NCBI RefSeq assembly: GCF_007990545.2
Contig: NZ_AP019829.2
Coordinates: forward strand, 1,922,001-1,986,000
DNA length: 64,000 bases
Direction: 5' to 3'
From: Leptotrichia wadei
GTDB taxonomy: Bacteria > Fusobacteriota > Fusobacteriia > Fusobacteriales > Leptotrichiaceae
In this document: positions 5,027 through 10,031 of the stretch, one piece after another
How the letters are laid out: the number at the start of each line of letters is the position of its first letter
How positions within the stretch are numbered: the stretch's first letter is position 1
The notes under the pieces: generated by a model
Database searches by the model: none
Seen by the model: the letters and a program-made list of their open reading frames with translations, nothing else
Told to the model about the DNA's origin: nothing
Position numbers and translations under genes: made by a program

Positions 5027-5839
5027 TTATCCTAACTTAAATACTTCATCTTCAAAATGCCGTATCATTTCTCCTTTAAAAAATTTTTCCATTTTTTCCA
5101 TCATCAAATCCACAAATAGATATTCACTTTCAAAATGTCCAATGTCAACTAAAATACGTCCTTCCTCTAAAGCATCCAAAGCCTCATGATATCTCAAATC
5201 TCCAGTAAGAAATACATCTATCTTATTCGCCACTTCATACATAAACGAACTTCCGCCACCTGTAACAAGTCCAATTTTTCTAACATAGGAATTTTTATCC
5301 CCAACATATCTCACATAACCTATTCCAAGCGAGTCTTTTATTCTCTCTATTAAATCCCCAAGTTTCATTTTTTCATTTAATATTTTAATTCTAGCAAGTC
5401 CACCACAAACATGTTCCATTTTATTTTTTATTGGATTATAATCTTCAAATTCATGTTCATTAAAAATTATTTTTTCACCATCTAAATTCAATTTATCCAT
5501 TATAAAATCATTCAATCCATTTATTGCAAAATCTGAATTTGTATGAATTGAATAAACCGCTATTTTATTCTCTATTAATTTTAAAATTTTTCTTCCATGC
5601 ACAGTTTCATTCGTAATTTTCTTCAATCCTGAAAAAATAACTGGATGATGTGAGATTATCAAATCTACATTATTATCCAGAGCCTTCTGTACAGCCTTTT
5701 CCGTCACATCCAGACAAAATAAAATCTTGTTTATTTCTCTTGTGTTATCTCCCACAAGAAGCCCTACATTATCCCAGTCTTCTGCTATTTTAGGACTGAA
5801 AATTGTCTGCAGTTCTCCCATTATTTGCCATAATTTCAT
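5027..5839 (-). CDS. Nif3-like dinuclear metal-centre protein (YqfO family)
   Basis: The 270-residue protein matches the compact form of the Nif3/YqfO family (also called GTP cyclohydrolase I type 2-like). Metal-binding signatures are the double histidine in IISHHPVIF (H64, H65), GLVTGGGSSF in the middle, and DIGHFESE near the C terminus. The insert domain of longer Bacillus YqfO proteins is absent. The family forms toroidal hexamers with two metal ions per subunit; its cellular role is not settled. It is the last gene of the minus-strand run following rpoD and the sigma-like gene, an arrangement in which rpoD neighbours nif3 genes that is also seen in Firmicutes. Confidence 0.9.
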   Translation of the reverse strand: MKLWQIMGELQTIFSPKIAEDWDNVGLLVGDNTREINKILFCLDVTEKAVQKALDNNVDLIISHHPVIFSGLKKITNETVHGRKILKLIENKIAVYSIHTNSDFAINGLNDFIMDKLNLDGEKIIFNEHEFEDYNPIKNKMEHVCGGLARIKILNEKMKLGDLIERIKDSLGIGYVRYVGDKNSYVRKIGLVTGGGSSFMYEVANKIDVFLTGDLRYHEALDALEEGRILVDIGHFESEYLFVDLMMEKMEKFFKGEMIRHFEDEVFKLG

Positions 5840-5979: not shown

Positions 5980-6930
5980 TTAATTTACCGTATAATTTAC
6001 CTCTTCGCTATTTTCCACAAAATCATTTCTCATCATATCAATGGAAAGTTTATTAAGTGCCTTTTCCTTTAAGATTTTCACATTATGTTTTGCAATGTTT
6101 AACGATTTTGCAATTTCCTTTTCTGTATAAACTTTGTCATCAAGCCCATAAGTCATAACTAAAATTTGTTCATCCAAATAATTTAATTTTTTTGGAATAT
6201 TTTCTAAAATATACATCTGTGTGATTTTATCTGCTTTTTCAAATATCTGTGTATTTTCCATCAATTCTTCAGGCTCAACCTCGTCAAATAACATTTCCAG
6301 CTGTTCAATATATTCTGTTGTAACATTCATTTGTCTACTTATTTCTTCCATTGAAAGTCCCATACTTTTATCCACTTTTACTTTCAAATATAAAATATAT
6401 GATAATTCTGAGGATTTAATATCCTTTAATAATTCCTTTTGATATTCCAAAATATATTTTACAGCAAAATTTTTTATAAAGAATTCAGGTTCTTTTGTAA
6501 TTTTTGTAATTTGACTATAATAACTCAGTCCCGACATAATTCCGAGCGTAGCCTCCTGAACTGTATCTAAAAATGAAAATCCATATTTTGAATAAAGCAG
6601 GCTTTCCCTCACAGCAATTTTTAAATATTTATCAATCAATTCCTCTTTTTCCCTCTCATCATCACTCTTTTTCTCAAATTCTTCGTATTTTTCCTTTATA
6701 TTTTCCAAATATGATTTTATCGTATCTTTTTCCGCAATAAAAACATTTTCATCCTCTAGCACAATAAAATCACTTCCATCAGTTGAATTTCTGACTTCGG
6801 GAATATTTTCCAAATGAACAAATTTTAGAAATTCAAAAAATTCATCATCGCTCATTGTATAATGCTCAATAATTTTTTCAAAACTAAAACTTCCCTTCTT
6901 CCTAATATCTTCAAAAATTTTTTTTAACAT
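5980..6930 (-). CDS. Degenerate RpoD-like sigma-factor paralogue
   Basis: A 316-residue protein lies directly downstream of rpoD. Residues 95-139 align with sigma region 2 of the neighbouring RpoD (LDTVQEATLGIMSGLSYY against [18 protein letters not shown]). Residues 180-225 resemble region 3, and 248-297 resemble region 4 (YLDEQILVMTYGLDD then a helix-turn-helix ending EKALNKL). The promoter -10 recognition helix of RpoD (TYATWWIRQ) has no counterpart, and the -35 recognition helix has lost the RERIR arginines. The N terminus (1-90) resembles a winged region 1.1. A TAGGAG ribosome site precedes the ATG. Core binding may persist while promoter reading has changed; function is unknown. Confidence 0.75.
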   Translation of the reverse strand: MLKKIFEDIRKKGSFSFEKIIEHYTMSDDEFFEFLKFVHLENIPEVRNSTDGSDFIVLEDENVFIAEKDTIKSYLENIKEKYEEFEKKSDDEREKEELIDKYLKIAVRESLLYSKYGFSFLDTVQEATLGIMSGLSYYSQITKITKEPEFFIKNFAVKYILEYQKELLKDIKSSELSYILYLKVKVDKSMGLSMEEISRQMNVTTEYIEQLEMLFDEVEPEELMENTQIFEKADKITQMYILENIPKKLNYLDEQILVMTYGLDDKVYTEKEIAKSLNIAKHNVKILKEKALNKLSIDMMRNDFVENSEEVNYTVN

Positions 6931-7003
6931 TTATTTCTCCTATTTTTTATTTATTTTAGACATAAAACTTTAATAATCATATTTTATACTAAATATATCT
7001 AAA

Positions 7004-7030
7004 AGGAGCTAAATAACAACTTTAGCTCCT
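7004..7030 (-). terminator. Intrinsic terminator overlapping the rpoD stop
   Basis: A perfect 10 bp stem AGGAGCTAAA / TTTAGCTCCT with a 7-base loop is followed on the minus strand by TTTTAG. It includes the rpoD stop codon. It should separate rpoD from the sigma-like gene unless there is read-through. Confidence 0.75.
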
Positions 7031-8200
7031 ATAATCTTCTAGTTTTTTTCTTCTACTCGGATGTCTTAATTTTCTTAATGCTTTTACCTCAATCTGTCTG
7101 ATACGTTCTCTTGTTACATTAAAAATTTTACCTACTTCTTCCAAAGTCTTTTGAGAACCATCATCCAGTCCATATCTATATCTAAGTACCATCTCTTCCC
7201 GCTCATTTAATGTTTTCAGCACATCATTAAGCTGTTCCTTTAAAAGAACTCTCGTTGTTGCATCATAAGGATTTGAAAATTTGTCATCTTCTACAAAATC
7301 TCCCAGTTCACTGTCTTCTTCACTTCCAACTGGTGTTTCCAGCGAGATTGGATCTTGATTCATTTCAAGAATACTTTTTACTTTTTCTACAGGTAATTCA
7401 AGTTTTGTAGCCAGCTCTTCTGCAGTCGGCTCTTTTCCAGTTTCCTGAAGAATTATTCTACTCTCCTTTTTGATTTTATTAATCGTTTCAATCATATGAA
7501 CAGGTATTCTTATTGTTCTTCCTTGATCTGCAATCGCACGTGTTATAGCTTGTCTAATCCACCAAGTTGCATAAGTTGAAAATTTAAACCCTTTCTCATA
7601 TTCAAATTTTTCCACAGCCTTCATAAGACCCATATTCCCTTCTTGAATTAAATCCAACATTTTCAACCCACGATTAGTATGTTTTTTTGCAATACTGACA
7701 ACAAGTCTTAAATTTGACTCAATCAATTTTTGTTTAGCTTCCTCTTCGCCATTTAAAACCCTCTGAGCATAATCAATTTCTTCTTCATAGCTAAGTAGTG
7801 GAATCTGACCAATTTCTCTCAAATACATCTTTATCGGCTCATCCACATCCATACTTTCTGCCATTTTCAATAGATCTGTCTGCAATAACTTATCCACTTC
7901 CGAATCGTCAATTTCATTCTCAACAAACTCATCATGTGAATCTTCAAAATCTGATAATTCCATTTTCTCAATTTCTTCCATGGAATCAGGAATTTTTAAT
8001 AAATCTTCTTTTTCTTTTATAGTATCTACGATTTGAACACCGTCATCAGTCAATTTTTTTATTAGCTGATCAATTTTTTCAGTCGAAAATCCAATAGATA
8101 AAACAGAATTTATTTCTTCGTAACTTACAACTTTTTGCTCTCGTGCCTGTTTTATAAAATTTGCGAGACTATTTTTTAAATTTTGTTTTTTATCAGACAT
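7022..8200 (-). CDS. rpoD: Principal RNA polymerase sigma factor (sigma70)
   Basis: RpoD directs core RNA polymerase to housekeeping promoters. The 392-residue protein has a region 1.1-like N terminus (1-60), an acidic linker, region 1.2 ([17 protein letters not shown], about 119-135), region 2 with the -10 helix [11 protein letters not shown] (about 210-220), region 3, and region 4 with [22 protein letters not shown] (about 360-381). All key motifs are intact and the length is typical of Firmicute-like SigA. Its ATG lies inside the last codons of dnaG (8-base overlap), so the two are translationally coupled. A terminator overlaps its stop. Confidence 0.98.
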
Positions 8201-10031
8201 AACCCAGTCTCCTTATCAATATAAATTCATCATATAATTTCTTTATTTCATCAATTTTATTAATATTTTTTATTTTTAACAACAATTTTCTTAACTCAAT
8301 TTTTTTTATTTTATTATTTTCCTCTTCTGACTTTTTACTTTCTTCTCTTATTTCACGCTCAAACCATCCAGAATAAACTTCCATAAAATATCTATCTTTA
8401 AAATAGCTATCCTTGTACTTAATATCCTTATCAGCTTGTAATTTCAACTGTGTTACAATTTCCCTGCTTTCTTCATTAATACCATTTTTTTCAAGCCGTA
8501 CTATATCAAAATTTACAAGTTTCAATTTTTCTATTAACTCATTAAACAATGAATGGCTAAATTTCTTATTTAACAATTCTTCACATCTTTTCCTTTCAGA
8601 ATCATAAAATTCTAGAATGTACATAAGCGTCTGCTCTTCCAATTCAATATTCAAGTCTTCCTTTAATTTTTTATACTGAACTTTTTGACTTCCATAATTT
8701 TTTCTTTTTTTTCTTCTTAAAGTTTCACTTGATATATTTTTTAACGATTCTTCCAATACAAATTCATTGATTCCAAAATTGACCGATAATCGTTGTAAAT
8801 ATAAGTTTTTACTAAGATTATTTGTAATATTTGAAAAAAATGGCTTTAATCTTTCAATAAAATTTTTTTCACCATTTATATTATTCAGATCAAGATCCTT
8901 TGAAATTTCCTTCGTTAAAAAGTCAAAAATCTCTTCCGATTTTTTTACAACTTCTATAAAAGACTTTTTACCATTTTTTCTCAAAAACTCATCAGGATCC
9001 TTCTCACTCCCATCCATAACTAGGCATTTTACATCAAAATCATATCTTTTCAAAATATACCCAGCTTTTATAACTGCACTTTTTCCTGCTTCATCATTAT
9101 CATATGAAATCAATACCTTATCTGTATATCTTCTTAAAAGTTCTGCCTGCTCTTCAGTAAATGCTGTTCCAAGACTTGCTACTGCATTTTCAAACCCATT
9201 TTTCTGGGCTGTCAGCACATCAAGATAACCTTCCATCAGCATCGCAAAACCTTTTTTCCTAATATTTTCCCCTCGATATTTTATCCCAAAAAGCTCATTT
9301 CCTTTTTTAAAAATAGGTGAATCTGGAGAATTTAAATATTTAGGCAAGTTAGTATTTTTCTCAATTATCCGTCCTCCGAATCCAACGATTTGGGCATCTG
9401 CATTATAAATTGGAAAGGTTACTCTATTTCTGAAACTGTCATAGATTTCTCCGTTTTCATTTCTTTTGACAAGTCCCAGTTCCATTATTTTTTCTTCTGG
9501 AAAATCCTTTTTTAGTAAATATTGAAATAAATCATCTCGTGAACTTGAAGCAAATCCAATTCCAAACTTTTTTACTTCCTCCAGCGAAAAATCCCGTTCC
9601 TTCATATATTCCAACGCTTCATTATGCTTTTCAATATTTTCTTTAAAAAATACTTGAGCTTCCTTCATTATTTCAAAATATTCTCTATTCACAGTCTTTT
9701 TCTTTTCAATTTCCTGATTAACCGTTTCATATCTCCTATTTTTTTTTAATGGAATATTATATTTCTGTGATAATTCCTCCACTGCTTGAACAAATCCAAT
9801 GTCATTAATTTTCATATAAAATGAAATTACATTTCCACCAATTTGAGTACTGAAATCTTTAAAAATATTTTTTACTGGACTGACTGTGAAGGAAGGAGTT
9901 TTTTCTTCCTTAAAAGGAGAAAGCCCCTTATAATCTGAACCTGCCTTTTTCAAATTAACATATTCACCAATCACTTGAACAATGTCCAGATTGTCAATTA
10001 ACTTTTGTATTTCTTTTTTACTGTAAAACAT
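8193..10031 (-). CDS. dnaG: DNA primase with degenerate zinc-binding domain
   Basis: DnaG makes RNA primers at the replication fork. The 612-residue protein has the CHC2-like N-terminal domain (1-100), the RNA polymerase/TOPRIM core (about 120-370; EGYLD near 266 and YDNDEAG) and a C-terminal helicase-interaction region. In the N-terminal domain the usual zinc ligands C-x2-H...C-x2-C are replaced: the motif reads SPFK (S38, K41) and then D59 and T62. The TPSF segment and GGN that flank the ligands remain, so alignment is secure and the fold is likely kept without zinc. It is followed by rpoD with an 8-base overlap, has a GGAGG site before its ATG, and a consensus promoter upstream. Confidence 0.96.

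What the first reader, a model, noticed from the sequence alone, without database searches (positions are those of the whole stretch)
5980..6930. Degenerate sigma70 paralogue directly downstream of rpoD
Seen: residues 95-139, 180-225 and 248-297 follow regions 2, 3 and 4 of the adjacent RpoD in order, but the -10 recognition helix is gone and the -35 helix lacks its arginines. Known: sigma regions 2.1-2.2 bind core and 2.4/4.2 read DNA. Inference: the protein may bind core (or be an anti-/co-sigma device) without normal promoter reading, or be a decaying duplicate. An intact frame, a good ribosome site and a terminator separating it from rpoD argue that it is kept.
Basis: partly seen in the sequence, partly recalled or inferred. 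Interest (0 to 1): 0.7.

Follow-up and report, generated by a model that had tools for sequence, protein, structure and literature searches.

The report
Promoter-blind sigma-like protein of Fusobacteria
Next to the main sigma-factor gene of Fusobacteria sits an old, conserved copy that keeps the surface for gripping RNA polymerase but, in most of the phylum, has lost the parts that read promoters, so it probably works on the polymerase in some other way.

Summary
The 316-aa ORF (5980-6930, minus strand) of a Leptotrichia genome is homologous to sigma-70 regions 2-4 (Pfam Sigma70_r4 1.8e-9; hhalign against RpoD 94.8%, E 5e-8; all top PDB fold matches are sigma factors). It has no tryptophan, so no melting dyad, and no -35 arginines. 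It keeps the RpoD D403/Q406/E407 core-binding motif.

It is neither local nor decaying. One clade (100/100), separate from RpoD, occurs in 94 of 98 Fusobacteriota genomes, directly upstream of nif3/DUF34 and usually just after rpoD. Outside the core Leptotrichia group 61 of 64 junctions overlap nif3. Omega in Leptotrichia is 0.06, like nif3.

Deep genera encode a nearly complete sigma (WW dyad, basic HTH). Leptotrichiaceae and derived Fusobacteriaceae lost promoter-reading residues while region 2.2 core positions are kept 83-88% (pool mean about 20%, p<=5e-5). In several genera the DNA-facing helices have become acidic.

Best reading: a core-RNAP-binding, promoter-blind sigma-like regulator descended from an ancient group-2-type sigma, tied to Nif3. 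Core binding is inferred, not shown. I found no functional paper; the likely F. nucleatum orthologue, FN1317, has been detected by proteomics.

The parts
5980..6930 (-). rpoX: sigma-70-like paralogue, 316 aa
6649..6930 (-). residues 1-94: N-terminal part, weakly like sigma regions 1.1/1.2
   Evidence: alignments; helices
6514..6648 (-). residues 95-139: regions 2.1-2.2
6541..6573 (-). residues 120-130 FLDTVQEATLG: kept core-binding motif (E. coli L402, D403, Q406, E407, G411 equivalents)
6421..6513 (-). residues 140-170: place of regions 2.3-2.4, melting and -10 residues absent
6256..6420 (-). residues 171-225: region 3-like part
6040..6189 (-). residues 248-297: region 4 with HTH, -35 arginines replaced; the most constrained part within the genus
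6937..6941 (-). AGGAG ribosome-binding site of rpoX
   Evidence: sequence
7004..7030 (-). 10-bp hairpin over the rpoD stop codon, weak terminator-like element conserved in Leptotrichia
7022..8200 (-). rpoD, normal primary sigma factor
5027..5839 (-). nif3 (DUF34), the constant neighbour of rpoX

Best explanation
rpoX is an ancient group-2-type sigma factor of the Fusobacteriota that lost promoter reading in most lineages, including Leptotrichia, but kept the surface that docks on core RNA polymerase. Likely mechanism: region 2.2 binds the beta-prime clamp helices and region 4 the beta-flap region, so the protein occupies the sigma site on core. Because it cannot melt or read a normal promoter, it lowers or modulates RpoD holoenzyme, by competition or as a regulator riding on core or early elongation complexes. 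Its level is set together with nif3, usually by translational coupling. Shown here: homology, phylum-wide retention, purifying selection, selective retention of core-contact residues, loss of DNA-contact residues and charge, linkage to nif3. Inferred: core binding, competition, and any regulatory outcome.
For: Core positions kept 83% (Leptotrichiaceae) and 88% (derived Fusobacteriaceae) against pool means of 18% and 22%, permutation p<=5e-5; DNA-contact positions kept 0.8% in Leptotrichiaceae (table). Net charge of region 4.2 falls from +4.1 in RpoD to -2.2 to -3.7 in g12, g13, g15; region 2.3-2.4 from +5.0 to about -1 to -2.5. Omega 0.059 overall, 0.045 in 2.1-2.2, 0.020 in region 4, 0.093 in 2.3-2.4. 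94 of 98 genomes of the phylum. One clade 100/100. Sigma fold. Overlap with nif3 at 61 of 64 junctions.
Against: No binding or functional data. The motif may be kept partly for the fold of region 2. Region 4 is the most constrained part in Leptotrichia and still slightly basic there (+1.6), which could mean DNA binding. In derived Fusobacteriaceae DNA-contact positions are lost no faster than the average position (23%), and Y430 and W434 are often kept. In the smallest genomes (g2, g7, g10) the core motif is eroded too.
Confidence: 0.5

Rival explanations
1. A working but very divergent alternative sigma factor that melts and reads a different promoter, in a way convergent with ECF sigmas (region 2 plus region 4, little region 3, no WW dyad).
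For: Deep genera keep WW and a basic HTH and look like working sigmas. ECF sigmas also lack the WW dyad (own knowledge). Region 4 has omega 0.020 in Leptotrichia. Fusobacterium members lost most of region 3 and match the ECF superfamily model TIGR02937 at 2e-14.
Against: Both DNA-facing segments are acidic in g12, g13 and g15; 2.3-2.4 is the least constrained sigma region in Leptotrichia; no -10 or -35 contact residue is kept there.
Confidence: 0.27
2. A partner or regulator of Nif3 (DUF34), perhaps in metal handling, that no longer works on RNA polymerase.
For: Constant position before nif3, kept even where rpoD is elsewhere; overlapping reading frames; His- or Cys/His-rich loops in many g15 members, g17 and g14; DUF34 is a proposed metal chaperone or insertase (PMC8469502).
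Against: Core-binding residues are the best kept positions; G001 keeps rpoX without nif3 and G050 keeps nif3 without rpoX; the window protein has no metal-binding-like loop.
Confidence: 0.13
3. A sigma decoy that binds an anti-sigma factor or other sigma-binding protein and so frees RpoD or another sigma (as PhyR does with NepR).
For: A sigma fold without promoter reading is what such a decoy needs.
Against: No anti-sigma gene at the locus in any genome read; it would not need the beta-prime-contact residues in particular.
Confidence: 0.05
4. A decaying duplicate of rpoD without function.
For: Long branches and erosion in small genomes; an IS605-type insertion after about codon 58 in G014; loss in G050.
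Against: Omega 0.059 over 35 Leptotrichia pairs; nearly all frames intact in 94 genomes; at least as old as the phylum.
Confidence: 0.03

Closest known systems
Group 1/2 sigma-70 (RpoD/SigA, RpoS; TIGR02997, TIGR02393)
   Same: Descent, order of regions 2-4, core-binding motif in 2.2; deep members score best with these models
   Different: All members score far below the family cut-offs; Leptotrichia and derived Fusobacteriaceae lack melting, -10 and -35 residues
ECF sigma factors (TIGR02937)
   Same: No full WW dyad in derived members; region 2 and region 4 with little region 3 in Fusobacterium-type members
   Different: Reached from an RpoD-type ancestor; no anti-sigma gene beside it; acidic DNA-facing helices in several genera
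SigO/RsoA two-part sigma of Bacillus subtilis (own knowledge; named in PMC8103513 and PMC10028694)
   Same: Sigma-like proteins with reduced region sets that act on core polymerase
   Different: rpoX is one chain with regions 2 and 4, and no partner gene of that kind is seen
PhyR of alphaproteobacteria (own knowledge)
   Same: A sigma fold that no longer reads promoters
   Different: PhyR mimics an ECF sigma to bind an anti-sigma and has a receiver domain; none is seen here

Membership tests
Sigma-70 superfamily (by descent) | Homology to regions 2 and 4 in order | tested here: met
   hhalign E 5e-8 over residues 22-297; Pfam r4 1.8e-9; r2 in 59 of 87 members
Sigma-70 superfamily (by descent) | Sigma fold | tested here: met
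   pLDDT 85.7; all 36 PDB matches at E<=0.001 are sigma chains; low global TM because of domain packing
Working group 1/2 sigma factor | Core-binding motif in region 2.2 | tested here: met
   5 of 6 positions in Leptotrichia
Working group 1/2 sigma factor | Melting dyad W433/W434 and -10 residues | tested here: not met
   No Trp in the protein; 0% of positions kept. WW is met in the deep genera
Working group 1/2 sigma factor | -35 residues RERRQ in region 4.2 | tested here: not met
   2% kept in the genus
Working group 1/2 sigma factor | Score above curated RpoD/RpoS/SigB cut-offs | tested here: not met
   45.9 bits at best against 384.5
Working group 1/2 sigma factor | Promoter-specific transcription with core | not testable with these tools
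   needs in vitro transcription
ECF sigma factor | Score above the TIGR02937 cut-off (42.9 bits) | tested here: not met
   25.2 bits for the window protein; some relatives pass: 53.5 for L054
ECF sigma factor | Cognate anti-sigma gene nearby | tested here: not met
   neighbours are dnaG, rpoD, nif3
PhyR-type decoy | Fused receiver domain | tested here: not met
   no such Pfam match in the window protein or in the family tally

The most novel reading that the evidence does not exclude
A whole phylum carries a former sigma factor that was converted along its tree into a standing regulator of core polymerase, linked to metal homeostasis through nif3. In Fusobacterium-type genomes His/Cys-rich loops in place of region 3 would sense metal and set how much core polymerase is open to RpoD.
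Probability: 0.12. Interest if true: 0.85.

Novelty: new variant of a known kind. Interest (0 to 1): 0.64.

Why it matters
Sigma factors are treated as promoter readers. This family preserves graded intermediates, from near-complete sigma to apparently promoter-blind core binder, in one phylum at one locus. That makes a general question testable: what can a sigma do once it no longer reads DNA? It also bears on transcription control in Fusobacterium and Leptotrichia, where few regulators are known, and on annotation, since such genes are simply called 'sigma factor' (FN1317 in PMC4234264).

Tried and rejected
Recent local duplication of rpoD: rejected by the tree. Decay: rejected by omega and spread. 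A strong terminator between rpoD and rpoX: only a weak conserved hairpin. Promoter scan: the number of matches equals chance, so no use was made of it. A genome-contig scan with the single protein found nothing; one with A4 gave six loci, three of them ordinary sigma genes of other phyla. The structure model of the Fusobacterium mortiferum-type protein came out poor (pLDDT 62) and was not used. Link between the WW dyad and the YqfO-type insert of Nif3: a tidy table (11 of 11 WW members beside an insert-bearing Nif3) but only 1-3 independent pairs, kept as a lead. Paper searches for sigma paralogues that lost promoter reading, and for FN1317, found no functional study.

Full report
What is there. 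The window lies in a Leptotrichia genome: its second contig matches only Leptotrichia plasmids. On the minus strand the order is dnaG (8193-10031), rpoD (7022-8200), the ORF of the finding (5980-6930, 316 aa, called rpoX here) and nif3/DUF34 (5027-5839). Pfam gives Sigma70_r4 at 1.8e-9 for residues 248-295; region 2 is not significant in this sequence alone. The profile of 16 Leptotrichiaceae members against fusobacterial RpoD aligns residues 22-297 with probability 94.8% and E 5e-8. An AlphaFold model made with 87 relatives has mean pLDDT 85.7. All 36 PDB matches at E<=0.001 are sigma chains, the best a SigA-RpoC model; global TM-scores are low (about 0.2), most likely because the domains are packed differently from sigma in holoenzyme. 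The family profile finds SigA/RpoD chains in the PDB at E down to 2e-42.

Spread. In the family 33 of 33 genomes carry the gene. I read the DNA upstream of nif3 in the other Fusobacteriota genomes. Outside the family 61 of 65 genomes have a sigma-like ORF directly before nif3, two of these cut or split. Of the four without, three also lack nif3 (G033, G083, G084) and one (G050) has nif3 only. In total 94 of 98. The upstream neighbour is rpoD in 49 of the 68 loci tallied. In g7, g10, g11, g25 and g29 the gene has left rpoD but stays with nif3. 61 of 64 junctions overlap, 41 by exactly 4 nt, nearly all ATGA, a sign of translational coupling. In Leptotrichia and its nearest genera a gap separates the two genes (140 bp in the window).

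Age. A careful tree puts 29 rpoX proteins on one side of a branch (100/100), with all fusobacterial RpoDs, two Ruminococcus-MAG RpoDs and other sigmas on the other. The duplication therefore predates the split of the sampled Fusobacteriota. The tree flags long branches, so the order inside the rpoX clade is less sure.

What was kept and lost. Positions were mapped through RpoD onto E. coli sigma70 numbering; which residues bind core or DNA is taken from own knowledge. In all RpoDs tested the sets LDQEGG (core), RQT (-10) and RERRQ (-35) are invariant. In rpoX of deep genera (g18, g20, g21, g26, g27) the WW dyad and part of region 4.2 are kept, while RQT reads KKI or KKL. g19 and g24 keep WW. 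Derived Fusobacteriaceae mostly keep one W. Leptotrichiaceae have neither. Over 141 RpoD-invariant positions in regions 2-4, Leptotrichiaceae keep 18% on average but 83% of the six core positions (permutation p 5e-5) and 0.8% of 13 DNA-contact positions (p_low 0.02). Derived Fusobacteriaceae keep 22% on average and 88% of core positions (p below 5e-5); their DNA-contact positions (23%) do not differ from the pool. Net charge of region 4.2 goes from +4.1 in RpoD and about +3 in most deep rpoX to -2.2 to -3.7 in g12, g13 and g15; Leptotrichia lies between (+1.6). In the smallest genomes (g2, g7, g10) the core motif is eroded too.

Selection. In nine Leptotrichia genomes NG86 omega averages 0.059 for rpoX, 0.021 for rpoD and 0.076 for nif3 over 35 pairs. 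Inside rpoX it is lowest in region 4 (0.020), residues 226-247 (0.034) and 2.1-2.2 (0.045), highest in the tail (0.18) and in 2.3-2.4 (0.093). Many synonymous distances are near 1, so the values are approximate. One genome (G014) carries an IS605-type element after about codon 58.

Reading. The pattern fits a protein selected for binding core polymerase at the sigma docking sites and not for reading promoters. Steps shown: descent, retention, selective conservation. Steps inferred: binding, competition with RpoD, regulatory effect. The strongest rival is a divergent sigma with another promoter mode, since ECF sigmas also lack WW (own knowledge) and region 4 is strongly constrained in Leptotrichia. 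The link to nif3 is at least as firm as the link to rpoD. DUF34 proteins are proposed metal chaperones (PMC8469502), and disruption of B. subtilis yqfO changes about 420 genes (PMC8670212). His- or Cys/His-rich loops occur in many g15 members, g17 and g14, not in Leptotrichia.

Literature. F. nucleatum FN1317 and FN1318 are both listed as sigma factors whose protein levels differ between communities; FN1319 is listed under DNA replication (PMC4234264). By gene order FN1317 is the rpoX orthologue (inference). No other paper in the library names either locus tag. Presence outside Fusobacteriota was not properly tested.

Noticed in passing
L058, L059, L077, L078, L081, L083-L087 (rpoX linkers): His- or Cys/His-rich stretches (up to 11 in 20 residues) in the rpoX of g14, g15 and g17, absent from RpoD and from Leptotrichia rpoX; look like metal-binding loops.
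   Followed up: partly
nif3 of L043-L049, L062, L095-L097, L102-L108: Nif3 is long (326-366 aa, YqfO-type insert) beside every rpoX that keeps the WW dyad, and about 260 aa beside most that lost it; too few independent events to test.
   Followed up: partly
L119:1220-4514: Ruminococcus MAG contig with two near-normal rpoD genes flanking a third, very divergent sigma gene just after dnaG; a separate, parallel case.
   Followed up: no
L060:2509-5430 (G014): rpoX cut after about codon 58 by an IS605-type element carrying an OrfB/TnpB gene; the rest of the frame stays open.
   Followed up: yes
L079:3087-5200 (G050): rpoD and nif3 only 65 bp apart with no rpoX between them, the one clear loss beside a kept nif3.
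   Followed up: no
L017:2495-3306 (G012): nif3 is split into two overlapping frames (175 and 100 aa) beside an intact rpoX.
   Followed up: no
window 7004-7030: Hairpin formed by the last codons and stop of rpoD with the bases after it, conserved in Leptotrichia and nearby genera.
   Followed up: partly
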